Shown here one piece after another: positions 7,357 through 61,300 of a stretch of DNA of 64,000 nucleotides. The stretch is from contig OX465581.1 in NCBI GenBank assembly GCA_950022655.1, forward strand, positions 105,011,125-105,075,124, written 5' to 3'. The DNA is from Alentia gelatinosa. Taxonomy: Eukaryota > Annelida > Polychaeta > Phyllodocida > Polynoidae. Below the pieces are notes generated by a model. It saw nothing but the letters and a program-made list of their open reading frames with translations. It did no database searches and was not told where the DNA came from. Made by a program: the position numbers and the translations under genes. Numbering within the stretch: position 1 is the stretch's first letter; the number at the start of each line of letters is the position of its first letter.

Positions 7357-7394
<38 letters not shown>

Positions 7395-21159: not shown

Positions 21160-21170
21160 TATATATATAT

Positions 21171-21273: not shown

Positions 21274-21347
21274 TTTATTAAATATATAAATACAAAGCTT
21301 CATAAAAAAATCCTAGTACAAACAGTCAAAAATACACCGAAATGACT

Positions 21348-21575
21348 AAGACTAAAATACGTGCTTGTGGGTCAGATATGATAAGCCGACTGACCGTTAA
21401 TGCGAAGGTCGGTTACGTCACGGGCCCCGTAACCACGGTAACCCGCGACAACAAGTAACCATAACTCCCGGTAACCAAACCACGGAAAACGAGAGTAACA
21501 ATTAATAGAGTATAGGTAGGAGAGAGGTATGGCCCCCTACAATTTATATACATATAAAACTTATATTTAGACATA
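21348..21575 (-). repeat. Internal repeat A2 of the Ngaro-like element
   Basis: About 227 bp starting AAGACTAAAATACGTGC (plus strand) and repeated at 25711-25938 with a few substitutions (GTGGGTCAG versus GTGGTTCAG; ACCCGCGAC versus ACCCACGAC). It abuts repeat B1. Confidence 0.9.
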
Positions 21576-21675
21576 ATATTGATACAGGGGAATTGCTAGT
21601 GATAATAATTGATATGAAGCATAACATGAAAAAGAGACAACGACGTGTTTGGAGGCATCAACAATAAATACAGGC
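21573..21675 (-). repeat. Internal repeat B1 of the Ngaro-like element
   Basis: Second copy of the 103-bp repeat, placed between the recombinase ORF and A2 as expected for split direct repeats. Confidence 0.9.
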
Positions 21676-21699
21676 CAAAAACCCTCCAAACACAAGTAA

Positions 21700-24722: not shown

Positions 24723-24746
24723 AACAGTGTCACTGCCGGCAACATT

Positions 24747-25676: not shown

Positions 25677-25710
25677 TCTTTACAAACGATAAACACCATG
25701 TACTAATCCA

Positions 25711-25938
25711 AAGACTAAAATACGTGCTTGTGGTTCAGATATGATAAGCCGACTGACCGTTAATGCGAAGGTCGGTTACGTCACGGGCCCCGTAACCACG
25801 GTAACCCACGACAACAAGTAACCATAACTCCCGGTAACCAAACCACGGAAAACGAGAGTAACAATTAATAGAGTATAGGTAGGAGAGAGGTATGGCCCCC
25901 TACAATTTATATACATATAATACTTATATTTAGACATA
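25711..25938 (-). repeat. Terminal repeat A1 of the Ngaro-like element
   Basis: 5' terminal copy of the ~227-bp repeat, just upstream of the gag-like ORF in minus orientation. Confidence 0.9.
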
Positions 25939-36100: not shown

Positions 36101-39100
36101 GAGCCATGGGTTAGTCAGAACCTCTAAGTTCTTTGGTGAGGCCAGTCATCATAAACCTGTAACACACTGTCTTTCAGTAAAGGGTTATTCCTGATCACAT
36201 CCACAATCCGTTACATGGACTCACCGACTTTGTTCGTCCTAGCATCTTCCTCAATTATTCAACCTTGTTTAGGAGTGTGCTCAAGTCTCTCTATTGTACC
36301 AGTCCCTGGGCCTGAGCAACTCTAGATTGCTTTGGCGGCATTCCCTGACTGACTCCTCACTCAAAGATATGTCATAGGCCCAGTTCCTCTGTCTAACTGG
36401 GGTAGGGGAAATAAACTGGGAAACTTTCAAATCTGAATGCCCATCAGAGTTCAGGCAATGATACCTTCCTCGTCATCCTGTGGGGGAGATTTGTTTGCAA
36501 ACTTGGGAATAAATGATATTGACAGCTGGAGTCTCCAGGGGGCTGTTTCACTAGGAGCTAGACATCTCGCTGTTTGTAACCATGGCAGCAAAGCGGCAGT
36601 TTGCGTTTCATTAGTAGATGCACTCAAGCGTGAACAGCACTTGGGACATGAGCGGCACCAACAGTGGCAGATCCCCTTCATCAGTCAAGTGGCTCTCGCT
36701 GTTACTGCCACTGTGGCGCCACTGTAAGTGAGATGGTCGACCCTCTCGTTGGTTACGTATATAGAAAGCCTTCCCTTTAGATTAAGCAATGAAATTTTTA
36801 CACAAGTAAGGGATACATATAACCTATAATTGTATCAAATATGAAGAAAAACAGCCGTCCGGTTCCGAAGATATCGGCGTTTGAATTTTGTCATAGCAAA
36901 TACTGCTCTGTGTCGAGCACTTCCCGCCGGCCTCTAGGGGGAGACAAAAAGAACAGCCGAAACCCTGCCGCACTACGGAGGGAGTGAAAAAGAACAGCGA
37001 CCAACAGAGCAGATGTTTGCAATGACGAAATTCAAACGCTGATATCTTCACAACGGCCGTTTTCCTTCATATTTGGGACGATTATAGGTTATATGTATAC
37101 CTCACTAGTATTAAAGTTTCATCGCTTAATTCCCATGGGAAGAGGTGAAATTCCACGTTATCCCGGCCCATCGACGAATAAATTTGAACGTCAAACGCAT
37201 GTGCATAGCGAGACCTGTGCCAACAGTGAGAGTTGGTCTCACCTCAACAGCGAGACCACTGATGAAACGAGAATTCCGGATTGACTCTGTTGCTGCCACT
37301 GTTGCTGCCACTGTTGCGGTCTCACCCCTCACTTTCACCCCTCTATTAGTGAAACAGCTCCCTGATCTGCCCTGCCACGTGCCTATGTTTTACTCCTAGA
37401 CCTCTTTTTCAGGCCCCATTTATGCCATGCAGTTTGTCTCAACTTGAGTCTTAGCGTTACTGCTAGTGGTTCTTCTCGTGCTATTAGAATATCTGTCAAG
37501 TCTTATATATGGACACTAGATGCTGTGGTAAAAAGATCTGATTGATCTTCCGAAACACAGGAATGAGTATTTTCCTCAATATATATTCCTGCAGTCAATA
37601 TAGCACCTACTAAGAGCCCATCAGAACAATCTTTACCATCTGCCTCCACAGAGTGACAGGAGTAAGTGTCTGCTCTGTTCCACTTCATTGCGCAATGTCT
37701 GTGACACCATATAGACATTGGGGTTGTCTAGTTTCGTGACAACACAAGTAGCTGCCCTTAGGAAAAGACAGACCCCAAACATAAGAATTAGACCAATCTA
37801 CACATCATGGACCTGTTTCACTAGTTTCATGACAAAAGTGTTAGACAGACATGAAAAGCGGCACCAACAGTGCAAGTAAGAACGAACAAAACGAAGTCTA
37901 ATGTCTAGTGCTTATGAAACCGGACACACCATCTAGACATCTCACGAAACTAGTGAAACAGGTCCCAGGCATTACTTCACACATCCCGTGTTAAGGAACC
38001 GTTTAAGAAACAAGAGGTATAATAAAGATTGTATACCTAATAGCTCAGAGTCTTTTTTTGTGTCAGTAGGCTTGTCATAGCAAATATTGCATCTCTTTAG
38101 ACTTACCGAAAACATTCCAAACCAACCTACGTGGTAAAGCACATAGGGTAGCACTTTCTCACCCCACTGGAACAGACTAATCTAGTTTCGGGAAGTGCCG
38201 AGCAAGATGGAGAACCGGCGGACTGCTACTTAAATAAGAATGATGTGTAGTATCACATGATCAAATAATAGAATATGGCCTAGACAAAAAATTGCCTACC
38301 CCCTGGAGTTATTTATACCAGTCCCAAGTACCCGCCCCGACCAACAGGGCTGTGCCACAGACCCCGTCTTTAAAGGGTTAACAAGAAGATTTTTGGTGGC
38401 TAGGCTTTATGTCTTCATTCATTTGAAAACAAATTTGTAGTTCTCAGCGCGGCTCAGTGGAAGCGGTCGCTAGGTGCCATGTAGGCCCCGTGTGGTACTT
38501 TTGTAAGACATTAATATATATTTTTCTCTATTTCGTTCTTCGGTGCTTCTTACTTCGGCGCTGTTCCGTCTGCAACTTGTTATGTTACTTGTTATCTCGT
38601 GCACACCTGCTTACGAATAAGTGCTCACTGGTTTCCTGGGTGAAATAAATGGCCTTTTGATCTGTTGATATGCACGTCATCTGACTCTTTGTATCCAGTC
38701 TGCTCTATATATCATTATGCATCCAGGAAATTCGGCTGGTGGGTGGAAGCATGCCCTCTCGGGGCCGCCTCGAGGTATACCACAGCTCGCAATGGGGAAC
38801 GGTTTGTGACGATGACTTCGGCAGCAATGACGCAAGGGCAGTATGCCGTTTGCTGGGACATGTATCTGGGTCGGTGAGAAATAGTGCCGCTTCGGTCGGC
38901 ACAGGTCAGATTTGGATAGACCAGGTGAGATATTTCGAATTATCTGTTAAATGTGAAAGCAAACCTGGTACCTTACACTTAGAAAATATTATAATATTAG
39001 ATTGTTGTCCAGATGTACGATCTTCTATGACGAAACGACAAAGATGCAGTTAGAGAAGGGATTATTCATGTTAATCACCAAACTATCTTTATTTGATTAC

Positions 39101-40329
39101 CGGTATATAGGTTCCATTATGGCATGACATGTCGTTTGATATTCTTGGAATAAAATTGCAACAAGTTCGTGATAACTCACATTTGTTGCTGCCATTGATC
39201 ATGTTGTTAGTTATGCTTACGATCTGACTGTCAATGGCCAACGACAATATCTTTGCAATGCCAAAATCTGGTATTATATCCATATAAGAGGAATTGCTGT
39301 TGCGAATTAATTAAATCAATACCGATTTAACCGTTTGGTTTGTCTTTCCTTATTTAGATAGAATGTCCATCAACAATAGGCGACATTGATGAATGTCGGC
39401 ATAACGGTTGGGGACGCCATGACTGCAGCCATTCAGAGGATGTTCGTCTAGAATGTACAGGTATGTCCCCGGACACATCAGGGTGTCTTTACCTCACCGC
39501 GATATTCTCTCAATAAAAATGACATCTCACATCAATAACAGGACAGTATTGAGTATGTACAACCTCATTCAAGAAATCTGATATACCTCTGAGCAGTTAA
39601 CACTGGCTGGTGGTTATACATGCACGTCACCATTCCGAAGTACATCCACTCTGTGTCTTGGACCAATCACCACTTGGCGATATATTTCTCAATTTCTCAC
39701 CGAGATATTGGCTCGTTGGCTATCCACATTATCTTTCCTTCTTCAAAATTCTTAAGACAAATTGATTGGCTGATGGTGATTTTGTGAGGTAATATTGGAA
39801 TGGTATAGAGGGTAGTAATAAGGTAAAAAAAAAAAGTGGGAGTGGGGAAGGTGCAGGGTAGGGGTTTGAACCCTCCTCTCCCCACCTTATTCTGCTTTGA
39901 TTTGCTTGTAGAATAGCCCTTTCACGTCATCATACGTTATATCCCTTATATCATGTAGAAATTGCATAATCAGTTAATTATGAGAAGTAATCTGTTAAGA
40001 AATCCTTACAGGAACTAGTTCATAATGCTTACCACGTATGTGGTACCGACCACACCTTGAGACTTATTTCTCGATGGTCATATGTACATGTGCGTGTATT
40101 CAATACCTGATTGTAACCGTGGTTTGATGTAGGATTATAGGGCTCTACAAATATAGAAAGAGCCCACTCATAACATGGTAGAATGACAGCCATTCTAACT
40201 TCTACTATAATAAATTTTAATCAGAATACATTTGATGCAATAGTCATATCATCTGTATGTCCAAACTATATATGAATTTCCTCATATTCTTTGAGCATAT
40301 TCAGACCATATTCGACATAATGCAGTCCA

Positions 40330-40422
<93 letters not shown>

Positions 40423-43400
40423 CATACATTATCTCACCCCTGATTTTCCCCATTGACTTAATATTGGAAACACGTACTCGATGCCCATGGAGTATTGTTA
40501 AAAAGGCCTGCTAATCCTTTGGCATCGGGATATATCTGATCAATAATTTCAACGCGTATTTTTGACGTACGAAGTCAGTGAGCCAGTTTCCAACTCCCAT
40601 TGGGTATGTGCTTTTTCTACGTTACATTTCGCAGTATACAAGACATGTTGCATGTTAGGTTTATAGTAAAAATTGAATTCCATGATATAAGGAATATAAT
40701 TAGAAAGCCCACAGAGTCACAATACCTGTTGGCCTACGCTTATTGGAAGCAAGCATAAAACATAATTGTCCAAGGTTTATTATCATGAACGATGAAGCTG
40801 CTACAACTAATTTTCTATCTGTTTGTCTATGTTACGAGTATACGGAAGAACACTAAAACTCCCATGGCTGATTGTGCTTTGTATGGCTTTACGTTACCTT
40901 GAATTTAAAAAAAAATCGTTTCCTCTGCTAAGTCTATGGAAAAAAACGCAAGGGGTGAGATAAAATATGTTTCTTCAACCCTGCACCTTGCTATTATAGT
41001 TTCTATATATTGTTTTCACAGGTCCCTGTGTACCAAACCCATGTCAAAATGCTGGATCCTGTGTCCATTTTCAATCCAGCCAGTACATGTGTATCTGCCC
41101 CGCAGCGTACTCAGGTCGCCGGTGTGAAATAGGTAATTATCACCTACAAGTATAATGAAGTTATCCAAAACCTGGCAGCATTCAAATTCCATAGCACATT
41201 ATTATCGTTTGTTCTCAGTTGTTAAAAAAATTATATGACTTCATCAAGGTTTTGTCATTTACATTTCAACAATACAGTGATTTTTATATCTGATGAGCGT
41301 AGGACACGCCCATACGCTAGAACCCTGCTTAAGGGGTCATCTTCCCAATTCAGATAATCAGTAGTGTGTTGCCCTCACACCGCCCTATAATACAGTAGAA
41401 CCCCGCCTAACGGACCCCCCGCGTAAGCGGTCACCCAACATAAGGATGTTCCCTTAACCGGAGTTAGACTAAACACTTTAAATAGAGAGAACAATTTCCA
41501 TTCCGAGCAAATTGTCTGTTAACGGGTTCCCTCTTTATGCAAGGTTTACACTGGGGGCCACGGTGGCCACGGTGGCAACCACAACAGCCAGAGCAGTCAA
41601 TGGCACTTACAGCGGAGTCTATAGTCTCGTTTCATAAGTTGTATCGTGGTTGAGGTGGTCATTCCATTCACTATGCCAGCATGGTGAACGAGACATTTAA
41701 TAAATCTATATCTAATTATTGATTCAATTATTCCTCGTGTTTTTCCTCACATTCCAGTTTTTATTTGACATCCATTTGTGCATTATTGACTGAGTTATGG
41801 TGCCAACACTGCAGCTCTCGCTTGTAAGACATGAAAGTGGTAGCCTAGGGTCGAGCGGCACAGTGGCATACCGACCAAGTAGTGCAGTGACTGCAGCTCT
41901 TGGTTCGACTAGAATAATGGTTCTCACAAAGGAGTTGATCCCTAGAGAAACATGAAATTCAAGATATGGTTTTAAAAATTTGTGTGGAGCATGTTTTTCT
42001 TTATCTAAATATGTTTTAACATCTGATAAAATATGTTTTAAAATTGTTGTTTTGATCAATTGTTGTTTTGAATTGTGCTTTGGTCCAAAGTGCCGCTCGC
42101 TGTTGTCATCCTTTCCTATTGAAATACGAAGTGCCGCTATTTGGTTAGTGAGACCAACAACGAGAGTATTTTCAACTAATGAAATAGCTACCATGGTCGC
42201 CTGGGCCTCCAAGGCCCAGTGTGAACCAAGCATATGTGGGGTATCCCGGAAGCGGGGGTTCACTGTATATATTTGGTACATGGAAAGGTTATATAAACTT
42301 TCAGCGTGTTGTACCTTCTGATTCTTCACTAACTGCATGTTGATATTATTTTATTTTCCTTATTTTACTAAAAAGAAAAGTACACTAGTAATTTACTATT
42401 GCAGGTTTTCATTGTAGGATTGATCAATCTATGTAGACAATTCATTTCAATTGTAGCATTGGTGACTACAACTGCAGTATCCTTTCATTGCTACCCGTAA
42501 GGGTTGTACAGACGTATCACTGTATTCATAAACCCTATGTTAGTAATAAGTATATAAAGGATTTGCTAATGTAAAATATACTTTTAACGAATTGTGCAAT
42601 TGCTTCAAAATAGAAAAAAGCATGTTATAAAGTTCTTAGCCAAGACAAACTTAGAACAACTACTTTAATGTGATAAAAAGTGGCTTTCCTTTCTTTTCTA
42701 AAAGAGCTTAGCTCTTTTATTTTCAGAAGATAGGTTGTTCAATTACATCATAATTTCTTTTTTTTAAACCACTTCTATTGGATACTATTGGATACATTGG
42801 CTCTGCTGGATCACTATGTAATCATTGTAATGATGTTAATGATGTTTCGATTGGTGATCCTAATAATATGTGCATAATTTATACAGTAACGCGGGTGCTC
42901 CAGCAGCCCGATGGTAGTACTGCTGATCCGTTGCCTTGGAAACCATCTCCATAGAGACGCTGGTAGCCGGTGAGCTGCTGGCAGGAGAAATGATAATAAA
43001 GCTTCAGTATGAACTCAGCAGTGAGAGGTGTTGGTCTTGTTCCTTGAGTAGGCTCGTGCTTGCTTATAGCGGGGACTTTACATTGGCGATCTTGCCAGGA
43101 TCTGTTTACCAGAGACAAGACACTAGTAAAGTCTCCGACTAAAGAGACATCATGGCAGATCAACAGCCTGACGACGACGCAGATAGATTAAGGATGGATT
43201 TGGATGTCAATAGGGAAACGAGAGACAATCTCAAGATGTATTCCAAATCCATAGGACGATGCAACGGGGTGAACAAAGAAAATCTGCGCGAGTGGCTAGA
43301 AGCGGTGGGATATACTAAGCGAATGACGGGTGCGAGCCAAACGCTAGTGATACAGATGGTCGGGTACCTGGCTCAGGGTGGATTGGCCACGTTTATCGAG

Positions 43401-46400
43401 ACAACGCTCAGCAGTTGGAACGAAGAAGACATTTCCTGGGAAAAGCTGGAAGAAGAAATATCGAAAACATATCTCGGAGAGGATGAGAAGAAATACCTAC
43501 GCCTCAAAGTAGACAGGATGGCTCAGTTGGAAGGCGAGTCTGTGAGGGATTATGGAGTACGGTTTTCGGAAGCGGTACGCATAGCGTACGAAGAAGACCA
43601 GTTGAGCGAAATCCTGAATAAGGAAAGAGTGATTGACGCTTTCATCGACGGACTGTCAGACCGTTTGGTTCAGTCCAATGCGGATATGCAAAATCCTACA
43701 TCGCTCAAAGAAGCTGTGAAATTCGCTTGTCGTGCGAGTAAGGCGACCGAAAGACGAGGGAGGAGATCTAAGACAGAAGAAGAGAATGCCATGGCTGCGG
43801 CGAGTGAGTCTGGAAATAAAAACAAGAACAAAGACGGTGACGGGGGAAAGCCTAAGGACCCAATGAATGAACTGTGTCATCTTATGAAATCGCTACAACA
43901 AACCCTCAAAAGTGTAGATAAGAGAATCGAAGGGAAGGAAAATATGGCGGCAGTTGGGGCACCGACACCAACGAAGACGGAGGATAAGAATATGGCCGGG
44001 ATTGGAAACAATCAGAGCCCCGCCAACGTCACGGATCCCGCGACCCGTCAGCCACAAGGAGGAACCTCGGCTCCGATAGTGTATCAATTCAATGCGCCAG
44101 TGACCAGAGGACGAGGACGGGGGCGAGGTCGTGGGAGAGGACGAGGTAGAGGAAACGGCTATCGAGGAAATCAAAACAACGGAAATGGATCGGGACGAGG
44201 GCCGAGAGGACCGTGTTTCACCTGCGGGAACTACGGACACTTTGCCCGGGATTGTCATGTCTACCAAGATAACACCCAGGGAGGGATGGAAACTTTCCAG
44301 GAATTCCAACCTGAGGAATCGGCATTCTATTCGGGAAACTGAGTGGTGCGCCGGACGGCAGAGTGAATATCCGAATGGACGTCGGGGAAAAAGAATATAT
44401 CGCTCTAGCCGATTCTGGCGCATGTCGATCGATGATGAAATGCTCGGTGGTTGAGGAACTGTGTGGGAAAAACGTAAAGGAAATGGACCTGGTGCAGGGT
44501 GAGCGTTTGAAATCTCTATCTGGACATGTCATTGATACTGAGGGGGTATGCATGATCAATCTGTTGGGTGAATCCATCCCTTTTTATGTGGTGAAAGAAA
44601 TGGGACATGATATGCTGTTAGGCATTGATGCGTTGGGTATATTAGGCGCACACATCGATTGCAGAAACAAAACCATAACGTTGAAAGATAGAGAATATAA
44701 ATGGGGACCAGAAAACGGGGGAGAACGCTATGTTGAAGGTATTTTGAACGAGTTAGATGAGTGGCGCTTGAGATTCCCAGAGGTTTTCTCGGGAAAGATC
44801 GATCCGCATTTTAGGAGAAAGGGGGTACAAATGACAATAGATACAGCCGGTCACGACCCGGTCCATCAGAAACCATACAGGGTACCGTTGCAGAAACGCA
44901 GAATGGTTGAAGAAGAAATAAGGGGGCTCCTACAGAAAGACATAATCAGGCCCAGTCAGAGTCCATGGTCCTCACCCGTCCTTTTAGTGCCGAAATCCGA
45001 TGGGTCAGTCAGGTGTGTGGTAGATTATAGAAAAGTTAACGATATAAGCAAAAAGGATGCCCACCCTATGCCCCAGGTGCTTGATATATTTGACCAACTC
45101 CATGGATCCAAAATGTTCTCGACCATTGATCTAAAATCGGCCTATTGGCAAATCCCAATCGATCCGAAGAGTAGGGAGAAAACGGCTATGGCTACACATA
45201 TGGGTCTTTTTGAATGGAATGTCATGCCTTTCGGTTTAGCAAACAGTGGCGCGGTCTGGCAGAGATATATTAATTCAGTGCTGTCACCTTTGATTTCAAA
45301 ATCGGTATTGGTATATCTGGACGATATAATTGTATTTTCCAAAGATGAGGCCGAACACACCCGACATTTGGAAGAAGTAATGACATTGCTAGCGCGAAAC
45401 CATTTGACAGCGAACCCTGATAAGTGTACTTTTCGACGGACGGAGATCAAACTGTTAGGGTACATTGTGAGCACCGAAGGCGTATCGCCCGATCCCGAGA
45501 AAACGAAGGCAATAAGGGAAATGCCGCCGCCACAATGTATCAAAGACGTTAGGTCGTTTCTGGGGATGGCGAACTATTACCGCATGTGCGTAAAGGGATT
45601 CTCCGAAATAGCCGCGCCACTAGTGGGATTGACAAAGAAGAACGCTCATTTCCGATGGGGGGTGCAAGAAGAAAATGCGTGGAATGCACTCAAAAACGAG
45701 TTAATTTCGGACAAAGTAATGGCGTTCCCGGACCTAAACAGACCGTTCATTCTATACACCGATGCCAGTGATTATTGTGTTGGGGGGATCCTAACTCAGA
45801 AAGATGGGAAGGGAGTGGAAAGACCCATACAGTATTTATCCAAAACCCTATCCGAGGTACAGTCGAGATGGGCAGTTATCGAGAAAGAAGCCTATGCAGT
45901 GGTTTGGGCACTAGAGAAATTCAAACCGTATATTTGGGGATCCATTCTATCCATCGTAACTGATCACCGTCCCCTCGTTAATTTATTCAAGACAAAGATC
46001 AATAATTCCAAGATCCAAAGGTGGGCCATTACGTTGGCAGAATATGGGGCGCCAATAGAATACCGAAAGGGAAGCCAAAATGTAAGAGCCGATATGTTAT
46101 CGAGACCGCCGAGACAGAGGGATAGATTGCAGGGTGCAGTGATGTGGGATTTCTGGAAACACAGCAAATTGAGTCCTACAGAGGTCGAGAAGGGACAGGT
46201 GAGAATGCGAGAGCGAAAGTGGGCCGAACAGGGTAGAGGACGGTTTGTAATACACAACAGGATAGTATATTCATTAGGGAAGAAAGGGGGAAATGACGAT
46301 AAACCAAGGTTGGTGGTGCCCAGATCCCTGACGGAAGAGGTAATCGTTCAGGCCCACGAAGAAGTGGGACACATGGGAGTTGAAAAAACCATGAAACGAT

Positions 46401-49400
46401 TAGATGAGCAATTTTGGTGGAACGGCATGGCTCGACAAGTTTTTGAACAACTTGAAAAGTGCGCCGTATGCAACGCTCACAGAACGAAAAGACTATTTCC
46501 ACCCACGTCAAATATGCCCATACCTACACGGCCTGGTGAGGTCATGGGTATGGACCTCATTGGCCCTATGCCAATATCAGAGAATGGGAACCGGTATTGC
46601 CTGATGATTATAGACCATTGTTCGGGATGGGCCGAGGCAGAACCAATCCCCGACAAATCCGCAGAATCAGTGTTCAGAGTCCTATTCGACAAATACGTGC
46701 CCCGCTACGGTGCACCAGCGATTATGGTATGCGACAGGGGATGTGAGTTCAAAAACCATACAGTGGATACGTACCTGAACAAATTGGGTACCAAGGTACA
46801 CTACACTACTAGCTATCACCCTCAATCGAACGGGAAAACAGAACGATTCAATCGAACCATAAAGTCTATCCTAGCCAAATTAGTAGATGCCAGAGCAAAT
46901 AGATGGGAGAGTGCTTTGGGACCAGCCCTTATGGCACATCGAAGAGCCGTGTCGGCAGCTACGGGGTATTCGCCCTATTTCCTACAGTACGGCAGGGAAC
47001 CCATTCCCATTGCGGCTGATTTGGGAGGGGCTTCACATGAGTCATTCACAGCCATTCTGGACGACAGGTTAAAGGCAATGAAACAAGCATATGTTATAGT
47101 CAAGAACAACTTAGAATCCCAACAAAAGAGGAATAAAGATAGGCTAGACAAGCGTCCCCGGGCAGTTCCTTTAGAAAAAGGGAATTCCGTGTTGCTGTTC
47201 CAGCCAGCTGCGGCTCCTTTGAATCCGCGATTTCAGAGTGGATTTGTAGTTATCGGCACCAATGGCGTTACCGCCGCGATTAAGGGACCGGACGGGAAGA
47301 TACAAACTGTAAATGTAGACCGTTTGCGTCTAGACAAAAACCTGGTAGAATCAAAGAATATGAACAAGGCACTAGGGGTACGTGCCAGAGCGCGAAATCT
47401 CAGAACCTATCCCAGCGATACGCGTAGATACGGAGAGGCCTCATCCAGGGGGACATTAAGGAGAGGAACAGGTGGGATCGCAGCAGGCCGGAAGGGCGGG
47501 CCTCGGGCAAAAGCTAGCGAACCTTCTCGGAACCGATTTGGGAGATCGGACGTAGATACGGGGGTGTCTGACAGGGACTCAGAGAGACATGGGAACGGCC
47601 GGGGGACCGATAGCGATGGGGATTCTGAGTACGATTCCGATTGGCTCGGAACGCGAACCCACACATCGCGAAAGGGGATAAATGTTGAAAGGGAGGATAG
47701 TGGGCGCGAACATCTGTATGGGGGCGAATCAGATGTTGAAAGCAATGATGATGATGAATACATCCCTCCAGATGGCTCAAAGGGAGCCGGCGATGATACT
47801 AGGGCGGGGTCCCGACAAATAGATGGCGGACAAAAAGGACAGGGGGTGGATAGGGCGGCTAGAGGGGTACGCGGTAACCAGGCTGAAAAGGCAGGCGCTG
47901 GTCGTTCCACGATCGTGCTGCCATACGCTGGCCCTTCATTACGGTCTGGGAGGCAGACAGTGAAGTACCGATTGAAATAGTCATACATTAGTACAAAACA
48001 AAACCAGAAACATGTGGTGTGCCTGGATACTGGGAATTTTGTGCCTGGCTATGAGTTATTTCGCTCAGGATATGCAAATGGAGGGAATCGTGAATGATGG
48101 AGTAATTATTACTAAAGCCGGATCTTCAAGAATTATTGGAGGATCGTGGTCGTTGGTAGTCACCATTGAACGCCCACAAACACCAGATCTAAAACAATGG
48201 AAAGAAGACACAGAAAATGTGATTAACCAACTCAAACCCATGTACGAAGACAAACGCAGGGATATGTGGAAATTGCGGATGAATCTGGTAGACGACCGCA
48301 TCACTTGGGGAAAAGAGTTGATACGTTGTGGAAGGGTAGACCCTACTACAGGCCCAAACAAAGACACAAACAGTGACAGACCGAAACGCGGATTAATTAA
48401 CATAGTGGGAAAGGCCATCAAATTCTTGTTCGGACTGGCAACTACCAGTGATCTAAACTCGGTGAAGGAGGAATTAAGGAGTTTACAGAGATCATCTTTT
48501 GCAGTTCGACATAATCACCATAAACTTATATCGGTCATGAATTTGACTCGGATGTTTGTGAAAGAAGACCGTGAAGATATTAACAAACTCAATCAGGCCA
48601 CCGAGGAATTAAATCGAATATCAGACAGACTGGCCCGCCGAATGTCGTGGTTAGACGAAGCTTTAACACATCTAAGAATCTACGGAATGGTCGAGGGCCA
48701 CATCGAAATGATGGAAGCATTATCACACGATTTCATCAGGAGAGCGGAAATATTCAACAGACAGTTCTTGGCTCTAGAGCGAAATGACCTAAATAGAGAC
48801 ATTCTACCACCAAAAGTTCTACGTGAAACCTTGGCCTTGATGACGGAGTTGGGATACGACGCTATAAACGAACACTGGTATTATAAGTACATGAACGTGT
48901 TACCGTTATGGTCTCAATCGGGGGAGGACTCTCAAATGGTGTACCAGATATCCCTTGTCACCGTTGAAAAGGAGGTATTCCTTAATTATAGACTTCAATA
49001 TTTCCCGGTGCCAATGAACCCAGAATACGATAGACAAATAGTGGGAAACCAACTAGTGGCTATTTCAACGGCTTCCAAAGACTCTTTTAGGGTTATGACG
49101 GATCTGTGTGTAGGTAACGCGCCAAAGGTATGTCAACCTGTTGTTATGAACTATCCCAGTGTTTGCGAGGCCGAAATGATAACAATGGCTAACCCCAAAC
49201 GTTGTAATGTGTCCCTCTTCTCGGCAGGGTCCAAGGACCCGAAATTATACCGGTTAATTGATGATGCGTCTTCAGTGGTTGTGGTATCCAGAAAGAAGGT
49301 CACTATCAGAAAATTGTGTTCGGGACAGGTGCCACAAATCGTGAACCATGTGGGAGTGGGTCTATACCATTTAAATAGAACTTGTCGTCTGAAAAGCAAA

Positions 49401-52400
49401 GAATGGGAAGTAAAGGGCATGTCCATAGGCACTAGCAACGTGACTATTCTTCCTAAGAAATGGGTAAAATTACCTCGATTAAACATCACCTGGCCAAAGG
49501 CGTTGGACCCCATCACGGTTAAAGAACTCAAATTGGGAAGGCGAAACGAGATACCGATTATTGCTCTGCCTGACGTTCAGGAGGACTACTTGGGGTGGGA
49601 TAGAACAAATAGGTTTTCTATTTATGGAGGTTCGATGGGTATAGCAGCTATTGTTGTGGTACTCGTCTCCGTCGTTGTGACAATATATGTGAATCGCGAC
49701 CGGATCAAAAATAGATGTATAAAGAAAATTGTCGACGACGAAGATAGCGATGTTGGCCCTGAACACCCCCAAATCATTATTGAAAACAATGTGAATGAAC
49801 CTATATCGATTCCCATGAGAGATATCGTAAACCCTCCTGTAACGCCGAGAATGAGAGAAATGGTGATGAGTGTCAATCGAAATGTTGGGCAGGGAGAAAA
49901 AGTGGTCGAAAGAAAAGATAAGAAATAGATCAAAGGGGGATGAGATCTAAAATGTGCCGAAGTAAAAAGGAAAGGTGAACACGGAGAATTGGATAACAAT
50001 TACTGTATCTATGAATCGTAAAACATTGTATCTTAGAAATAGGTGTTGTGACCCCAAGTTTATTTTACATACTTATGGGAAGATAACAAGTTTGTAATGA
50101 TGGATGTCAAATACGCGAAAATATCTACCATCCCCATAGATGGGTCGTGATTATGCTTATTTACAAATGTCGTTCACTTATGTCTTTAATGGTTTTGTAG
50201 CGTAGATCTTACAGGTATCCTTTATACTTACGATCCTGTCATCGTGTAATTCTTGTCTTTATATTATTTTCAAATACTTGAAAACTTGGGATAAGGACCT
50301 GTGTAATCATTGTAATGATGTTAATGATGTTTCGATTGGTGATCCTAATAATATGTGCATAATTTATACAGTAATGCGGGTGCTCCAGCAGCCCGATGGT
50401 AGTACTGCTGATCCGTTGCCTTGGAAACCATCTCCATAGAGACGCTGGTAGCCGGTGAGCTGCTGGCAGGAGAAATGATAATAAAGCTTCAGTATGAACT
50501 CAGCAGTGAGAGGTGTTGGTCTTGTTCCTTGAGTAGGCTCATGCTTGCTTATAGCGGGGACTTTACAACTATATTGCAACTATCCAGCCATGTTTCTGTA
50601 CCTCCCGCCTGTGAGTTGATGAATGTATGGATTTAGTTGTTAAGGAAAGGAATCTACCACAGATGTTATGTTAGTTTGAGAATGATGGTGAGCTCAATGA
50701 ATCTAAAGGTATGCAATTTATAGCTGCTAATGTCCGAAGTCTATATGGGAAACTTGGGGATTTAATGTTTAATTTAAAAAATATTGATTTTATAACACTG
50801 AGCGAAACCTGGTTAAATAAAAAATATACAGTAAATATGTTAAATCCACCTACCATGACGTCATTTAGAACAGATAGAAGTTATACAGAAACGAATATTG
50901 GTGGGGGGAGCACTTTATGTCAATGATAATCTTAGAGATTTTACAAAAGTTGTTATGAATTATATTATATCAAGGAAAGACATAGAATTTATAACAGCAG
51001 AAGTAGAGGCACCAAACATGAAGAAAATGATAGTTGTATCGAATTACAGACCGCCTGGAGATGACGAAGTGACTTTTTTATTCATTAAGTAATGCATATG
51101 AATGACAGGAAATATAGAAAAAATGAGTTTGGGTTAATGGGGGATCTAAATATCAATGTAAACACAAAAAGATGTCCAAAATATATTAATGAAATTCTTT
51201 TGACTGACAACCACCTAGCCTTAGCTAGACCAATAATTGAAAAATGTCGGCATTCAACCCTATATTTATATAGGAGAGCAGTATTGGAATAAGCTAAAAC
51301 CAGAAACACAGATGGAGATATCAAGTTATAGTTTTAAAAACAGGGTTTTGGGGGAAAAACATGTATGATATTATTGACACATAAAACATGGCAGAGGTCC
51401 ATGTGGCAGAACAACAAAGATAGTTGCATAAACCCTTACTTCGGGATCGAGTCAAGTAGAAGTGTTTTTGTTGATTTCTTAAATTCAGCAAAAGGCGGTG
51501 TCAAGCGGACAATCAGAGGTAATATACTCACCTGCACCCAGTCCTGTATGACTGATTTTAAGGGGGAAAATCAACATAACGCAAAAAAAATTTTTAATCA
51601 AATTATCTTCACCTTCTCTGCTGATGCAAATCAAATTTCAAAGATGTTGTCCATAGCATCAAGAAAAGGACCAAATATTCAAACAATGCAACAACATTTT
51701 GAAATGCTTTTCTAAAACCTAGAAATTACTCCTGAATTTGTGGCAATGATATAATATGAGCTAGCTCTGTTTTGGGGGTCTTTTTATCTTGGCATGCCAG
51801 ACCCTGTAATTGGCAGATAATAATGAGATTCATTTCTTCTAAGTTATTTTCGGAGAATAGTTGTCAATTTTTTCACAACTTAACTCCACAAATAATAATT
51901 CATGTACTAAATGGCAATAGTCATTGTTATCAACCAAATTCAAATTGATTCCATGTTCGTCCAGTTGCCAGTATAACCCTCACAGTATTCCTCAGGCATG
52001 ACCTCGTTAGTAGATACGTTCAAAAACAAAAGTTGATCAGAACGTATGAATATAATTTCCTTCAACAAACTTCTGTCGTACAGATATAGTATTTGAATAA
52101 TAGAGGGCTTGCCTTCCATGATAATCCTGACTAATAAGGATAGCCTCATTCGTTTACACATATATCCTTATATTCAAACATGTGGTAAATGGAATTCAAA
52201 TTGAGAGTGATTAGCATGGTACATCTTATTACAGTTACATGTTATAAAAATTACATTGCCATGAGATCATACAACCTTATCAAAGAATAAACATCCCCAT
52301 GAAAAATTCTTCTCAAACCCTCTTGAAAAGAAATAGTTGCATAATTTATTCAGGTTCTTACTCAAAACATACTATCTTTCTTATGTTATGATACTACAAA

Positions 52401-55400
52401 ACAGCAATCGAAAATTTAAATGACATGAAAAAATAGATAAAACCTAAAGAAATCCTGCCAACATGGTCTTAACTACTGTGATAAAAAAGTAGTCGAGATT
52501 GCTGTCATATGTTGACAACAGAGAAAACAAGACAAGACAAGACAATTGAGGCTCCACATATGCGCAATATTCTGACAAATACAATTAAAACATGGACATA
52601 ACATGTGTACAATATATGTCTTTCTACTAACAACATACAATTAACACCCACTGGCCTCCTATGGTATCAAACAAGACAGTCCCATCATCAGAAGGGACTC
52701 AATCATACAACCAGATTGATTGGTTTCAAGTATTAACTAAACCGTTCCTCAATCGCATGATCTGATGTAATTTGTTGTAGCCCCAGTTGTGTGAATTACA
52801 TTCCTAATTACAACATTGCACTTTAAATCTCTGTCATACTTAAACAGTTTTTCAATTCTAAACTTCACCCATACAGGTCAAGTGTGCTCTAATGAAAAAG
52901 ATTTTGTCTCTAAATATAGAATTTCGTATGTAAGCATATATAGTTGTATTTTTTGCTTCACGTCCTAAGTCTATTGTCCTTCGTATAAGATACAATGGGT
53001 TAGTATCAAAATCCTATCCCATGAAAGCCCTGAGCCAATTACCTATTTGTTTCAAAAAATCTCTGCACACATAATATAAGTGGCTTGAAATGTATCCATA
53101 GAGAGTTACCGAAATCTTACACCAAACCTTTTTCTTCAAACCAAACCTTTTTCATTTTAATCACTGTTACTGTTCTATATGATAACAAAAAACGTTTGGT
53201 GTTGCTTGGACGAACGATATGTATTATCGAAGGCAAATGGAAACTTAAAAAAAGAAAGAAAAAGAAGTAAATGTTTGTAGTACGTTGCACATAGTAGTAT
53301 GCATTATCAGTATCTGCATGTAGGTCATGAGATATGTGACTATCGGTAATCTAGGATAGTCGCGTAGTGAGAAACAGACGGGGCACAGAGCGGGTGACAT
53401 TGTAAGAGGTAATGGGAAGGGGAAGTAGGAGACCGAAACTAGCACTGAACAAACTAAATGTGAGACTGAAACTGAGATACTAAGAGAATCAGTCCCAATT
53501 TAAAAGTGTGACAAGTTGACCGTTTTACCCCTCAAGACTTATCTCTAAATTTATGGTTAAGAAATCTATCTTCATCCATTAGTCTATGGGATATCACGAC
53601 AAACATATTTGTCTGTACTGACATTGCTTTCATCATATGTTTCAGCTGCTAACCCATGCTTATATATGACTTGTCTTCATGAGGGAACCTGCGTGAGCAA
53701 TGGGACTCGAGGGAGCTGTAACTGTATGTCTGGATTCTCAGGCCAACATTGTGAAGAACGTACGTTGATCGCATGTTCCTGATAATACCATGTTCCTGAT
53801 AATAGAGGTCCTCTTTAGATGTGACAGTACGGAATGTGAAGGAAATACTTAAGCATATTTTATTATGCTGCAGATTGAAGACATTCATCCAATAGTTGTA
53901 ATTACAAGCATGTCTATTAGTTGTTTCTGTGAAACTCAAGACTTAGATATCAGAAGATTAACTCAGAATAGCAATTTTGTATTTATCCAAGTATGAATGT
54001 TATTTTTCTTGTAGTCTTTTTTCAGGCATATGATTTTGTATATCATGTTATTTTATAGGTGACCCTTTTCAAATTCCGATTAGAGTCTCTGCAAATATTG
54101 GAAATAAACAATGAAATAGTAACAGAAATGATAAATTCGAACTACATTAGTCAAATTATGTTTATTGGCCTTCAGAGAGTGAAACAATAAATGTTATTTA
54201 CTATGTATATGTCTGACCTATACAATTACTTTCCTAGAAAGTACATTACCTTCAGATGTCTGTAGCTCAAAGGTTTGTCTTAACAATGGTAACTGTACCA
54301 AGATTGGTACTCTACCCATTTGCAACTGTGTTCCTGGCTTCACTGGTGCCAACTGTGAACAAGGTAAAGCTACTCCTTTTCTAATTGATTGCCCATTGTT
54401 TTCAGCTATTTCTCTACAATTAGCCTTCAGTAGATTTCTGTTAGGTGGGACATCCTTCATCTTAATCCAGACTGATCTATTATGAGGGCTGTTCCCCACA
54501 TTAGGGCAGTGTGTTATTTTCCACTGTATATCAAGTATTACACCTGTTAACTTATAGATGATGTAATTATTTGTGCTGGCAAGTATTTGAACCTTAATGT
54601 TTTTTGTTGACAGACATTGATGAATGTCATTCAAGCCCATGTGGAGAAAATGGTATATGTAGAGACAACACAAATGGTTTTATATGCAAGTGCTTCCCTG
54701 GCTGGACCGGGATAGATTGTCAATCAGGTAAGAATATTGAATCATGAATTCATGAATTCAATTCACAATTTGTTCTCTCACCTTGTATTACCATGAGGGA
54801 TGTTACTAATCTATCTATATCATATTGCTAGTAGTATTACTACATGAAATTAGTTGACATGATGGAATGAATAATATATTGCTTTGGATAAACATAAAAC
54901 CTCTTGCATAAGGTAACCTAGTTCATAGTATCAGACTGCCTTATGTTAATAAAAGAAGGACAAAAGATAACAATATTTCTTTTTATAAGTGTCATGGCCT
55001 AATACAGATACCAGAGGCTGTATTGCTCTGCAGATACTAATTCAAATTTTGAATATCTGCCTTTTGTGTACAAATAGCCTCTTGATACGGCAAATGATTA
55101 TTTACAAAACAGCACACTGTATCAATGAAATGTATCTTGAGAAGTTATCAATGAATGCCAGCTATCTTTATTTGTTTCCCTCAATATGGCAGTGTAAACA
55201 GGGGAGGTGAAGCGGGATTTAGTGTCTATTAAGATTCCAATCCAGGATGTGTTCAAACATTGGACAGGGACTGATGACAATACGTCATCTCGTAGTAATA
55301 CAGAGCATAAAGAGCAAACCTTCAGTTTCTCTTTAAGATACAATTAATTGTCTTTGGTAAATGCCATACCTTATGATAGAGGTTTTCTTCAGCAGTGTCA

Positions 55401-55940
55401 GCACTATAAGTTATTAAAAATGTATATTATGTAATTATAATTCTTATCCTATCATTTATATTGTGTGACATGGACAACCAACAGCTATAGCAATTGTCCT
55501 ATACTTTCCTCAGTGAATTATAGGAACACTAACCTATATTTTGACATCTATATTCATGTTCTGGCTAGATATATTCAAGATTGATCCTGATGGAAGATAG
55601 CATAAATTCCTCTATTAAACTTTGAAAACAGCAAATTTCATCCCATTTAGTGTTATGTGATAAAAGGTACATTTGCTATTTCGCGAGGTAATTCATCTCA
55701 ACTTAAATATCACACAGGTACAATGAGCACCCTTTAGAATTTTGAGATTGAGACATGAAAATATTGTCATATTTTGACCTATTCCATGTTTGACATGAAT
55801 TGTGTTTTTCGTGTCGTTTTTCCCAGACTTATCATAATTTATATCATGCTAATTATAGCTAATCTTCTGTATATTCTGGTCCGAGCTCATCTGGATATGT
55901 TTGCAATGAACAGAAATAGCGTTAGCAATCATTATTGTTC

Positions 55941-56006
<66 letters not shown>

Positions 56007-58295
56007 TATCTATAAATGTATGTCTGACTTATACAACTACTTTCTAGGGCATGCACCACCCTCAGATGTCTGTAGCTCAAAAATATGTCTTAACAATGGT
56101 AACTGTACCAAGATTGGTCCTGTGGCCATTTGTAATTGTGTTCCTGGCTTCACTGGTGCCAACTGTGAACGAGGTGAGGTTACTATTTTCCAATTGATTG
56201 CCCATTATCATTAGATATTTCTCCACAGTTAGTTTTTTCATCTTGTTTACTTCGTCATGTATTATTCCTATAGTAGAAATCTGTTATGTGGGTCATCCTT
56301 CACTTTAATCCAAAATGATTCATTATGGGTTGTTCCACATATTAGGACAGTGTGTTATTTCTACTGTACATGTATACCTTGCATAGATGATATAATTACT
56401 TGTGCTGATAAGCATGTAAACCTTAATGTTTCTTCTACTGACAGACATCGATGAATGTCATTCAAATCCCTGTGGAGAAAATGGTATATGTATAGACAAA
56501 ACAAATGGCTTTGTTTGCAAGTGCTTCACTGGCTGGACAGGGATAGATTGTCAATCAGGTACATATTAATATATTGAATTATGATAAATTCCTACAATGT
56601 ATAAATTCATTTTTACATGTAATATATCATCTGCTTCTCATTATAGTAATGATATTCAAAAATTATAATCTTATTCAGTAAAATCGTTCACAGGATGGCA
56701 TTAACCATAATGCAAGCATTGATAAGTTTCCAAATGGGTTCAGCCATAAAGTCGGGGCTGGATGTGAAAATTGTTGGTGATTTGTGTACATCCCTTTTAA
56801 TCTAATGCATGCAAGCTGGAGAGGGGAGGAGGGTAAATATTTTCAGTTAATTTCGGTACTAAACATACTCATTTGCTCCAGAAAATTATCTGTGTGACCA
56901 GTGGAATGCCCCGTGTTGTTGGGCGGCCCATGTTGCGGGGTAAAGCCGGATGCCCATCTACCGATTTAGGGTTGAATGATTAGTTCCCAAATCGTATAGG
57001 GTCGGTCACCTTGTCGCAGGCAAATAACGTAACCCCTACATTCGACCCGCGGCCCTCGAGGAGAGGGGCTAGTGGGTATTAGTCCTAAGGAAATCAGTCT
57101 ACACCTACCGACATATGTATACAATATAGCACACTGATGAAATTGGTCCACTAATCGCTGGGGGAGGGCAAAAACCAAAGAAACCGAGTGTGGCACCCCT
57201 CTTACAAGCCTCACCAAGCAATTACTGCTTTTACTGTGTCGGCCCGTGTCGGCCAACCAATCAACTCTCATTTCCCAACATTCCGTTGTCGCCGACTACA
57301 TTTATCAACATGTTGATAAACTGATCCCCACCGATTTTGGAACATTGAAACCACAAAAGGACGTCTGAAGAAGGTGGTTCACTAATCGGTGGGTAGCCTT
57401 GCCTAGCTGTCCTACATCTACCGACTCCGTTAGGATGGCTTGGCTGAGACAAATTACCCTCCGTTTGTCGCCGACAAACGTACATAAATGTTCCAAAATT
57501 GGTAGATGGGCATTAGCCTTAAGCTGGATGCCCATCTATCGATTTAGGGTAGAACGATTAGTTCCCAAATCGTATAGGAGTCGGTCACCTTGTCGCAGGC
57601 AAATTATGTAACCCCTCGCTCGACCCGCACACTGATAAAATTGGTGCATGGTCCACTAATCGCTGGGGGAGGGCAAAAACCAAAGAAACCGAGTGTTCAC
57701 TAATCGGTGGGTAGCTTTGCCTAGCTGTCCTACATCTACCGACTCCGTTAGGATGCCTCGCCTGAGACAAATTACCCTCCGTTTGTCGTCGACAAATGTA
57801 CATAAATGTTCCCAAATCGGTAGATAGGCATTGGGCTTTAAACTCAAAGATCTACGAAGAGAACGAAATCTATTCCGGCCCAGAGTATCATGAGTTACGG
57901 AGTGTCTCGCTACCGGGGTTCTACACTCTACATGTATATACAATAGATTTGGAGGTCTGTTAAGTGGGTACAGGGCTGTAAATCTTGTCCCTCTTATATA
58001 AGGTGTCTCTGATATGCATAAGATTTATTTTATTCTGTTACACAAGCTCACCAATGAAGGGCAATCTATCACGTTTCTGAAAATCAACAAAATATCTTCT
58101 TTTTTTTCATTTGGACACACAGTGACTGATGGATGTTTCGGGTCGCCTTGTCACAACGGTTCTACCTGCGTCTCTGAAGAACCACAAGGTTCTTTCCGTT
58201 GTCACTGTGCTCCTGGGCGACGGGGAAGAACATGCCAAGAGGGTAAGTCTCTCCTCCCACCACGGCCCCTCTGTGTTGTGTTTTGGGGTACATGT

Positions 58296-58361
<66 letters not shown>

Positions 58362-61300
58362 TAGGATAAGATCACAAGGCGGATTAACCGTTAGCGCATT
58401 TAGAATAACACGTCACGCATCCAGAGACCGCGCGGTTGCTTAGATACGTGACGAGGACAAGATGCGTGACGTAGATTAACATAGATACCGTTACCGGGTG
58501 AGTTGCGTAGAGTTGCCTTGAGTCCTCACATATATTAATATATTGAAATATATAGACATACACATGATTCGTTTTAATCTTGGCCACTGCATTCCACTCC
58601 TGAAGTTTTGGCTCCGGACTTCACTCGGCTTCGCCTCATGAAGTCACTTTGCCAAACTTCAGTCGTGGAATACGGTGGCCAAGATTAAAACTCATCCAGT
58701 TTTACGATAATACTATACAGGTATAGATGCAAAGGAAATGGTTTACCTTCTCACTGTAGTCCCTACTATATAAAATGTGAACTTTGTATAATATGCTGGA
58801 TGAATTACTGATATATGTATATCTTCAGATGACCCATGTATCGCATGTTCCAATCAGACACAACGTTGTGAAATCAGCACCAATGGAACAGCAAATAAAA
58901 CATTGAATTGCATTTGCCGTCCAGGTTTCAAAGGTGATCATTGTAAAATAGGTACGGAGAATATAACATACATTTATTGTCGGAGTACCTGTCATTCAAG
59001 ATGTTAATCCAGTAGCAAATGGATACTACGTTGATTATATGATTCTTAGCCACGATCAAACATGTTATAAAAACTAACTTGGGTACCAGATAACGTGTTA
59101 TTCATTTCGGCTTACTAACATTGAACTTGAACATGGTGTAATTATGTGATTGTGGAGTCTACTTAAGGTGATTCTTTTTGTTTATGTATGCATGCATTCA
59201 TGGTGAAATTATGACGAAGGCGTCTGCAGTTATCCCTAATTTGCACGAATAATCATATAATACATACCAGGGCTGTGCTGGAATTCTCCCCCATCAAGCT
59301 ATTTCAATAATGGAAAATTTAAGAACATGATGATAATCATCCGTGCTATTCCATTCCCGACATTTGAGGCTTTAGCATACTTGATCCCCTAGTTGATTGC
59401 AATTGAAATTATAATCCGAGATGATAATTTCTCAATGCATGTATTATCATCATAGACAGGGGCATGATGGAAGGTATCATTCTCCATCTGTTCACCTTTA
59501 ACAGACATTGCTTACTGTCTCAATACGACCTGTTTAAACGGGGGAACATGTCTTGAGATGGAGGCTGGCTTCTCGTGCGAATGCATCGACGGATTCACAG
59601 GACCTCGTTGTGATATCGGTGAGATATTATAATTAATATGCAAAGAAAAGACTACAAGTATTCCATGATAATCGACCTAGCAACATGAACCTTCTCCACA
59701 ATCATTACTTCGAAATGCGCTCATAATCTAATAACATATAATCACTATTTTCCAATTGGACCGTCGGTGGTCTTCACGCAGTAATTATTGTTCATCTTTG
59801 TGGTGGGTGTCGATGAAGTGCATTTTTATTTTGCCATTTTTTCCGTCTAGAAATTGATGCGTGCAACCTGTTTCCATGTCAGAATGGGGGCACTTGTAGG
59901 ACCGGCGTCAACACCTCCAAATGTGAATGTCCACAAGGCTTTGAGGGGGAACAATGCCAGCAAGGTAATGCAGTATAAAGACTCAGACGCCCTTATGTTC
60001 ATAAGGGAAGGGCATCGCACTACAGCAGTTCTACCCTATGAGAGGTAGTCCTTTTGCAAACACTAGAGGCTTGTCCGCTCTGTAGACACGTCCAGTAAAA
60101 CAGAAGTGCCTTACTGCCGTATGGTCTGTAGGATTATATAGATCTAACACACATTTGAAGCGGTATCATGCAGTTTTGAGTATTAAACCCATGTACACCA
60201 TTTTATGCAGAAAAAATCTTTTTAAGTACCACAAAATTAGAGATATACATGAAATTTTCAATTACATCCAATAAGTCATACTTTTGTTCGACAGGTCTTA
60301 ACCATAGCATGAGTTGTCATCACATGCAGAATACAATGGCATGTGTTGCTAACAGGTGTATACAAATATTTTATCTGCAGAAGTGAATGAGTGCCTCTCT
60401 AGCCCATGTGCAAATGGGGGTGGGTGTCTGGATGGTCAAGGTTGGTTTTTATGTCGGTGCCAACCCGGATTTTCAGGAACAACATGCGAACTTGGTAAGT
60501 ACTTGACAATTGGTAAATTGGAATTTGAGGAAAGTGAAGTGCTTATAACTTCAATAACTAAAGTCCTGCAATGAGATTTTCGCGGACTTTCTGGGGCTTT
60601 TCATGCAATGCCTGTGGTCCTTCCCGCGACAGACATACATTTATATAATTTTCTCTTCCTATATGTATTGGCACTGTGGACGTCTATGTTGTGCTTTTAT
60701 GTTATATATATGATACCACTATAGAGGATCGATTTTCACCTAGGGGTCTTTGATTCTGTCTCGAATTAAGAATATAAACATTAATATATTTCTCCTGATT
60801 ACATTGTGGGTTTGTTCACAGATTCATGCACAAATTTCCTATGCCTTCGAGGCGGGGACTGTGTCATGGAAAACCACGAACCTCACTGCCAATGTCCTGC
60901 GGGCTATCTAGGACAACACTGTGAAAGAAGTAAGAAATATATATCTCTCTCTCTCTGTCTGATATGGAATTAGACTAGGTAAATTAACATTCGGGTACAT
61001 TTGATCAATGGTACCATTACATTCCATATTTGTACGTCGAAATTGGTTATTACCGTGGTTATAGCAAGTTTGCTGAAATATATAACAGCTTCCAAGAAAA
61101 GAGAGCTTTTGTGAGAATAAAGCAAACCCCATCTTTGTAGATGTTTGTGACGAACAACAGTGTCTCCATGGATCCCAGTGCACGGTGGAAGAGGGTAGGG
61201 CTTTCTGTCACTGCCCGGTCGGTTACAACGGGAGCTTGTGTGAAAACAGTAAGTATGCCTCCGGTAAAATAATGGACATATTTTGGACACCATAGTTATT

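What the first reader, a model, noticed from the sequence alone, without database searches (positions are those of the whole stretch)
42817..50567. Apparently intact env-bearing Gypsy provirus in a lophotrochozoan-like genome
gag, pol, and an envelope-like ORF are all uninterrupted, and the two 266-bp LTRs differ at only two CpG-type positions. The 4-bp target duplication (ACTA) is perfect. Most metazoan Gypsy copies lack env; a complete errantivirus-like copy outside insects would be evidence of a recently mobile, perhaps infectious, lineage.
Basis: partly seen in the sequence, partly recalled or inferred. Interest (0 to 1): 0.88.

Follow-up and report, generated by a model that had tools for sequence, protein, structure and literature searches.

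The report
Young env-bearing gypsy provirus family
A complete virus-like jumping element with its own cell-fusion (envelope) gene sits in this animal genome, and dozens of near-identical young copies in the same genome suggest that the family moved very recently and that selection has kept the envelope gene in working order.

Summary
Window 42817-50567 holds two 266-bp LTRs (2 differences, both CpG transitions), a perfect 4-bp duplication (ACTA), and open gag, pol and env. Env matches Pfam Baculo_F (E 8.9e-8). New here: a 17/17 primer-site match to the host's own tRNA-Arg(ACG) genes, a GGGAAAC site right before the gag stop, and the family. The same 1.23-Gb genome holds at least 68 Env copies at 95-100% identity. 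Of 50 examined, 49 have both LTRs; 46 of 49 have a perfect duplication, 32 of 49 identical LTRs. Env is open from its ATG in 27 of 30 copies; its ectodomain (pN/pS 0.03-0.07) is as constrained as the integrase core (0.06). So a young family has spread as lineages that keep Env functional, which argues for Env-mediated (re)infection; infection itself is not shown. Env-bearing gypsy elements outside insects are already in print (Chary and Hayashi 2025, seen only as cited): a new member of a known kind. Not settled: host phylum, and whether pol belongs to the insect errantivirus clade.

The parts
42813..42816 (+). target-site duplication ACTA, 5' copy
42817..43082 (+). 5' LTR, 266 bp, TGT...ACA, AATAAA at 42995; no TATA-type motif found
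43084..43100 (+). primer-binding site, 17/17 complementary to the 3' end (with CCA) of host tRNA-Arg(ACG)
43152..44342 (+). gag (Retrotrans_gag, CCHC zinc knuckle), ATG to TGA
44333..44339 (+). GGGAAAC slippery heptamer in the X XXY YYZ phase, directly before the gag stop; GGGAAACTGA present in 18 of 20 other copies examined
44349..44420 (+). predicted RNA stem-loop downstream of the slippery site (z -3.24)
   Evidence: no compensatory changes among copies
44315..47980 (+). pol frame (-1 to gag): protease DSGA, RT YLDD, RNase H, integrase with D807 and E843, low-constraint C-terminal tail
48012..49928 (+). env, 638 aa from the ATG, Baculo_F-type fusion protein
48378..48389 (+). furin-type site RPKR in Env
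48390..48890 (+). putative fusion peptide (GLINIVGKAIKFLFG) and the region after it with a heptad-like stretch; the most constrained part of Env
49635..49691 (+). transmembrane segment of Env, followed by a 78-aa tail
50302..50567 (+). 3' LTR, AATAAA at 50480
50568..50571 (+). target-site duplication ACTA, 3' copy
38730..62672 (+). host exons, probably one gene: SRCR (38730-38930) and 15 EGF-like tblastn matches from 41042 to 62672 (two of them weak); the provirus lies between 41134 and 53657, same sense
   Evidence: four EGF pieces and the SRCR exon put to Pfam; SRCR and three EGF pieces pass the cut-off, one EGF piece just misses it

Best explanation
This is a structurally complete Ty3/gypsy (Metaviridae) provirus with an F-type envelope gene, one copy of a young multi-copy family in the same genome. 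Inferred cycle: the RNA is primed by host tRNA-Arg(ACG); Gag and Gag-Pol are made by -1 frameshifting at GGGAAAC; Env is probably made from a spliced RNA, cut by furin at RPKR, and mediates membrane fusion; cDNA is inserted with 4-bp duplications. Shown here: anatomy, tRNA match, insertion hallmarks in many copies, recent insertion, and purifying selection on Env. Inferred: frameshifting, splicing, cleavage, fusion, and that copies spread at least partly by Env-mediated (re)infection of germ cells rather than purely inside one cell.
For: Env matches Baculo_F above its gathering score (31.6 vs 24.1 bits), with RPKR, a following hydrophobic peptide and a TM segment. At least 68 Env copies at 95-100% identity on 14 contigs. 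Of 50 copies examined (the window's own included) 49 have both LTRs; 46 of 49 perfect 4-bp duplications; LTR differences 0/1/2/3 in 32/11/5/1 copies; 48 distinct flanks. Env open from the ATG in 27 of 30 copies. pN/pS 0.080 over 171 pairs of 19 copies without any stop in the matched frame; per part over 29 copies: gag N-part 0.022, integrase core 0.062, pol tail 0.302, Env SU 0.072, fusion-heptad 0.031, rest of ectodomain 0.053, TM-tail 0.166; six independent sister pairs 27 nonsynonymous vs 38 synonymous, ratio 0.196. Both PBS variants (33 and 16 of 49 copies) match two host tRNA-Arg(ACG) gene types 17/17. CpG observed/expected 0.946 against 0.404-0.874 in 82 mutually overlapping host windows of equal length.
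Against: No expression, particle or infection data. The best Baculo_F stretch is local (profile 135-225 of 609); put in alone, that part falls just under the cut-off (23.8 bits) and the N- and C-terminal parts do not match. No Env relative among candidates from 5.8 billion proteins. A signal peptide is seen by eye only: the 19-residue hydropathy scan flagged the TM segment alone; the heptad stretch is the best of many windows, without a control. Env-defective copies exist: one with most of env deleted and one frame-broken, both LTR-flanked, and 3 of 30 with stops, so Env is not needed in cis for every insertion. 3 of 49 copies lack a matching duplication. The copies examined are the best Env matches, biased to intact young ones. 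The stretch before the 3' LTR is a poor polypurine tract and no TATA-type motif was found in the LTR. The stem-loop has no compensatory support and 4 broken cells.
Confidence: 0.85

Rival explanations
1. An intracellular LTR retrotransposon that carries env as a passenger: copies arise by ordinary retrotransposition, env is intact only because the copies are young.
For: 32 of 49 copies have identical LTRs; env-deleted and frame-broken copies with both LTRs exist; pN/pS rises to 0.19 among the closest pairs.
Against: Youth alone does not explain a ratio of 0.066 between lineages with synonymous divergence above 0.2 (140 pairs), nor an Env ectodomain as constrained as the integrase core while the pol tail of the same copies is at 0.30.
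Confidence: 0.12
2. Env has been taken over for a host function, and its constraint reflects host selection, not viral spread.
For: Strong Env constraint.
Against: Constraint is shared by gag and integrase, and lies on dozens of separate young insertions with duplications, not on one old locus.
Confidence: 0.02
3. Recombinant: an env-less gypsy lineage that acquired an F-type env independently of insect errantiviruses. (Not exclusive of the main explanation.)
For: Pol relatives are numerous (2213, best 51% identity) while no Env relative was found in the same protein collection; none of 29 more distant pol loci carries a tblastn-detectable relative of this Env.
Against: Env evolves faster than pol; the collection gives no contig context, so the env status of the nearest relatives (P0016, P0025) is unknown; the 29 loci are 27-50% identical, and many end soon after pol.
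Confidence: 0.25

Closest known systems
Insect errantiviruses / insect endogenous retroviruses (gypsy, ZAM clade), env-F
   Same: gag-pol-env order; F-type Env with furin site, fusion peptide and TM (features listed in PMC12992720 section 7); young intact copies
   Different: LTRs end TGT...ACA and the letters of 46 duplications show no strong base preference, whereas insect errantiviruses are recalled to have AGT...-type ends and TATA-rich targets; tRNA-Arg primer; pol clade membership not resolved; host not shown to be an insect
Metazoan env-carrying gypsy elements (Chary and Hayashi, eLife 2025, RP108449)
   Same: env-bearing gypsy elements across animal phyla, as described in passages of papers citing that work
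   Different: The paper itself is not held, so I cannot say whether this family or host is among its 289 representatives (number)
Ty3 of yeast
   Same: closest solved relative of pol (E 2.1e-95); PR-RT-RH-IN order
   Different: no env (recalled); outgroup in the RT-RNase H tree
Bdelloid rotifer TelKA elements (PMC5408684, passages read)
   Same: non-insect LTR retrotransposons with a class I viral fusion protein
   Different: their Env is described as most similar to paramyxovirus F; this one matches the baculovirus F family

Membership tests
Metaviridae (Ty3/gypsy) | pol order protease-RT-RNase H-integrase, Ty3-like RT | tested here: met
   (the protease family match is weak, E 0.051; DSGA motif present)
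Metaviridae (Ty3/gypsy) | LTRs, tRNA primer-binding site, short target duplication | tested here: met
Metaviridae (Ty3/gypsy) | polypurine tract next to the 3' LTR | tested here: inconclusive
   sequence before 50302 is only partly purine; a stronger tract at 49932-49945 is 356 nt away
Errantivirus / iERV | third ORF encoding an F-type Env (furin site, fusion peptide, TM) | tested here: met
   the match is local
Errantivirus / iERV | pol within the gypsy/gypsy clade (PMC12992720) | tested here: inconclusive
   tree of 144 rows places it with unnamed P0016 and P0025 (SH-aLRT 98); no named errantivirus row available
Errantivirus / iERV | Env from a spliced RNA | not testable with these tools
   no RNA data; in-frame stops at residue 7, upstream of the env ATG, in 10 of 30 copies fit use of the ATG at 48012 or a spliced leader
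Errantivirus / iERV | insect-errantivirus LTR ends and TATA-rich targets (recalled) | tested here: not met
   TGT...ACA ends in 49 of 49; duplication letters A52 G49 T42 C41; the criterion itself is recalled, not from a call, so I file the element under Metaviridae with an F-type env, not as an errantivirus
Infectious (endogenous) retrovirus | Env under purifying selection during spread (criterion used in PMC4643047, passages) | tested here: met
   (counting method on a biased sample)
Infectious (endogenous) retrovirus | particles that infect cells | not testable with these tools
   sequence data only

The most novel reading that the evidence does not exclude
The family is a presently infectious, Env-dependent gypsy virus of a non-insect animal, with several co-circulating lineages (synonymous divergence reaching at least 0.31) that are still inserting, some of which may have entered this host separately from other hosts.
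Probability: 0.35. Interest if true: 0.78.

Novelty: new member of a known kind. Interest (0 to 1): 0.52.

Why it matters
Whether env genes of gypsy elements outside well-studied insects are working genes or passengers is testable, and one genome here gives dozens of dated insertions and a direct measurement: the Env ectodomain is as constrained as the integrase core while a neighbouring pol tail is not. If confirmed by expression and population data, it would point to an active gypsy-type retrovirus and give a natural setting in which to study germline invasion and host defence.

Tried and rejected
Env search in the protein collection, whole and by its conserved part: no hit. Env and P0016 scans of viral contigs: none. 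Degenerate fusion-peptide pattern in viral contigs: one match (L030), not examined, about what chance gives by my own estimate. Structure of Env without an alignment: mean pLDDT 33, unusable, so no fold search was run. Solved-structure search with Env: nine chains, best E 0.38, picornavirus capsid proteins, taken as chance. Pol scan of prokaryote genome contigs gave 28 loci, which I take to be eukaryote contamination; with L001 from viral contigs none of the 29 has a tblastn relative of Env; one (L012) has an unrelated 662-aa ORF after pol. RT-RNase H tree: 118 of 120 listed proteins and 24 of 29 loci passed the coverage filter; quick search with LG+G4 only; since the env status of the rows is unknown it cannot decide gain or loss of env. 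Passenger and host-takeover readings: see rivals. An early reading of 7-10 LTR differences in copies 10, 11, 18-20 was an end-finding artefact and was replaced. Stops at Env residue 7 first looked like broken env; they lie upstream of the ATG. Host phylum: not identified. APC1 match at 41724-42350: below cut-off, no solved-structure support. A genome-wide Baculo_F search was sent six times and never answered; a genome-wide pol search was not sent.
Full report
CHECK. The two LTRs are at 42817-43082 and 50302-50567 (266 bp), with TGT...ACA ends. They differ at LTR positions 74 (C/T) and 240 (G/A), both CpG to TpG/CpA in the 3' LTR; ACTA flanks both ends. Frames: gag 399 aa, pol 1221 aa, env 650 aa stop to stop, env ATG at 48012. 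The longest frame in 200 base shuffles was 181 aa.

ANATOMY. Gag has Retrotrans_gag (E 1.1e-7) and a CCHC knuckle; pol has RVT_1 (1.5e-37), RNase H, integrase zinc-binding and core domains; env has Baculo_F (E 8.9e-8, 31.6 bits, cut-off 24.1). The protease family match is weak (E 0.051), but DSGA is present, as are YLDD and the integrase residues D807 and E843. GGGAAAC lies in the slippery phase at 44333-44339, directly before the gag TGA; a stem-loop follows (-29.9 kcal/mol, z -3.24, 1 of 200 shuffles as good). In 20 other copies GGGAAACTGA is present in 18; against the window's structure, 11 distinct sequences show no compensatory cell, 5 one-sided changes that keep a pair and 4 broken cells. 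That frameshifting happens is inferred. Env has RPKR at 48378-48389, then GLINIVGKAIKFLFG, five N-glycosylation motifs, a TM segment (49635-49691) and a 78-aa tail; the signal peptide is seen by eye only (the hydropathy scan flagged just the TM segment), and the heptad-like stretch is the best of many windows without a control. The best Baculo_F stretch is the fusion-peptide region; alone it scores 23.8 bits, just under the cut-off, and the N- and C-terminal parts alone do not match. No TATA-type motif was found in the LTR.

PRIMER. The 17 bases from 43084 are complementary to the 3' end plus CCA of host tRNA genes. A pattern with the T-loop has 397 forward and 10 reverse matches in the genome and none for its backward control. 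The four loci tested hold tRNA-Arg with anticodon ACG. The two tRNA types (ending AAGATCG and AAGCTCG) correspond 17/17 to the two primer-site variants of the family (16 and 33 of 49 copies).

FAMILY. The window is contig C3:105011125-105075124 of a 1,234,393,884-bp assembly in 101 contigs. The Env search scored 68 of 1164 candidates, all 68 at 95-100% identity, on contigs C1-C14; the number is a lower bound. I examined the ends of 50 of the 68, the window's own included: one had no LTR match in its 5' piece; of the other 49, 46 have perfect 4-bp duplications (3 do not), and LTR pairs differ at 0, 1, 2 and 3 positions in 32, 11, 5 and 1 copies, with no gaps. One pair of copies shares flanks (a duplicated host segment), leaving 48 distinct sites. 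24 substitutions in 49 pairs is about 0.19%; with assumed (recalled) neutral rates of 1e-9 to 1e-8 per site per year the mean age would be roughly 0.1 to 0.9 million years. The window copy, with 2 differences, is among the older ones examined. CpG observed/expected is 0.946 in the element and 0.404-0.874 in 82 mutually overlapping host windows, which fits a recent arrival; the LTR alone is at 0.69. The LTR search scored 40 of 200 candidates; 38 of the 40 fall into 19 pairs, 18 of them 7.4-7.5 kb apart and one 6.1 kb; two have no partner in this capped list. Two LTR-flanked copies outside the Env list have defective env: one lacks roughly Env residues 50-514, one is frame-broken near residue 440. 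The sample is biased: copies were taken in order of their Env score.

SELECTION. Among 30 Env loci (the window's own included), 27 are open from the ATG; copies 7, 9 and 17 carry internal stops, and 10 of 30 have a stop upstream of the ATG. Over 19 copies with no stop anywhere in the matched frame (171 pairs; 11 copies dropped) mean dN is 0.0107, mean dS 0.149, and the ratio of summed proportions 0.080. Per part over 29 copies (copy 20 dropped as a duplicate; stop codons skipped): gag N-part 0.022, integrase core 0.062, pol C-tail 0.302, Env SU 0.072, fusion-heptad 0.031, rest of ectodomain 0.053, TM-tail 0.166; stops also in gag of copy 19 and integrase of copies 10 and 25. By synonymous distance: 0.191 (17 pairs, pS<0.03), 0.088 (68), 0.067 (181), 0.066 (140, pS>0.2); six independent sister pairs give 27 nonsynonymous and 38 synonymous changes, ratio 0.196. 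The higher ratio among the closest pairs is what post-insertion drift would add; it is also what recent relaxation would look like. The Env tree shows several supported groups that include LTR-identical copies. PMC4643047 (passages) uses this logic: env under purifying selection during spread points to reinfection, loss of env to retrotransposition. Pairs are not independent, and the method is counting (Nei-Gojobori), not a likelihood branch model.

SETTING. The provirus lies between EGF-like matches (41042-41134 and 53657 on) on the + strand, with an SRCR exon at 38730-38930 and further EGF matches to 62672, so it is probably intronic and in the gene's sense; that all these exons are one gene, and the splice structure, were not tested. 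Host phylum is unknown; 'lophotrochozoan' was not tested.

RELATIVES. Pol has 2213 matches at E<=1e-20 among 6972 candidates, best 51% identity; of the 120 listed, two bear an organism name (Cordylochernes scorpioides), and these two did not pass the tree's coverage filter. In the RT-RNase H tree the query joins P0016 and P0025 (SH-aLRT 98), inside a clade of 119 rows apart from Ty3 and 24 locus rows. No Env relative was found outside this genome, which leaves separate env acquisition open.

KNOWN. PMC12992720 (section 7 and passages), PMC13172572 (passages) and PMC12859917 (passages) state that envelope-carrying gypsy elements occur widely outside insects, citing Chary and Hayashi (eLife 2025; not held, seen only as cited). 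So presence outside insects is not new. What this locus adds is a dated, multi-lineage, Env-constrained family in one genome. My searches do not allow a claim that this family is unpublished.

VERDICT. A real, complete, young env-bearing gypsy provirus; new member of a known kind; infectivity plausible and supported by selection, not shown.

Noticed in passing
window 21160-25938 (-): A tyrosine-recombinase (DIRS/Ngaro-like by recall) retroelement with RT and recombinase ORFs and split direct repeats (21348-21575 and 25711-25938 at 98.7%; 21160-21273 and 21562-21675 at 97.4%), apparently young.
   Followed up: partly
G000 C8 about 39538010-39649470: A long tandem array of tRNA-Arg-type matches at about 1,023-bp spacing; 397 forward and 10 reverse matches genome-wide, only the first places listed. 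It carries one of the two tRNA-Arg ends that fit the provirus primer site.
   Followed up: partly
window 49932-49945: The best purine tract (AAAGGGGGATGAGA) lies 356 nt before the 3' LTR, while the stretch directly before the LTR is only partly purine, in the window and in other copies.
   Followed up: no
G000 C15:18678566-18684940 and C7:24775262-24783012: LTR-flanked copies with env mostly deleted, or frame-broken: possible env-less derivatives.
   Followed up: partly
G000 C11:30500114 and 30534669: Two copies with the same flanks, 34.6 kb apart: probably a host segmental duplication carrying a provirus.
   Followed up: no
L012:2448-4433: A 662-aa ORF after a gypsy-type pol in a contig of a bacterial MAG (probably contamination), unrelated to this Env and without Pfam match; possibly another kind of envelope.
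   Followed up: partly
window 7357-7391 and 34211-35152: A run of 35 G and a 942-bp ACACCC-type hexamer array.
   Followed up: no
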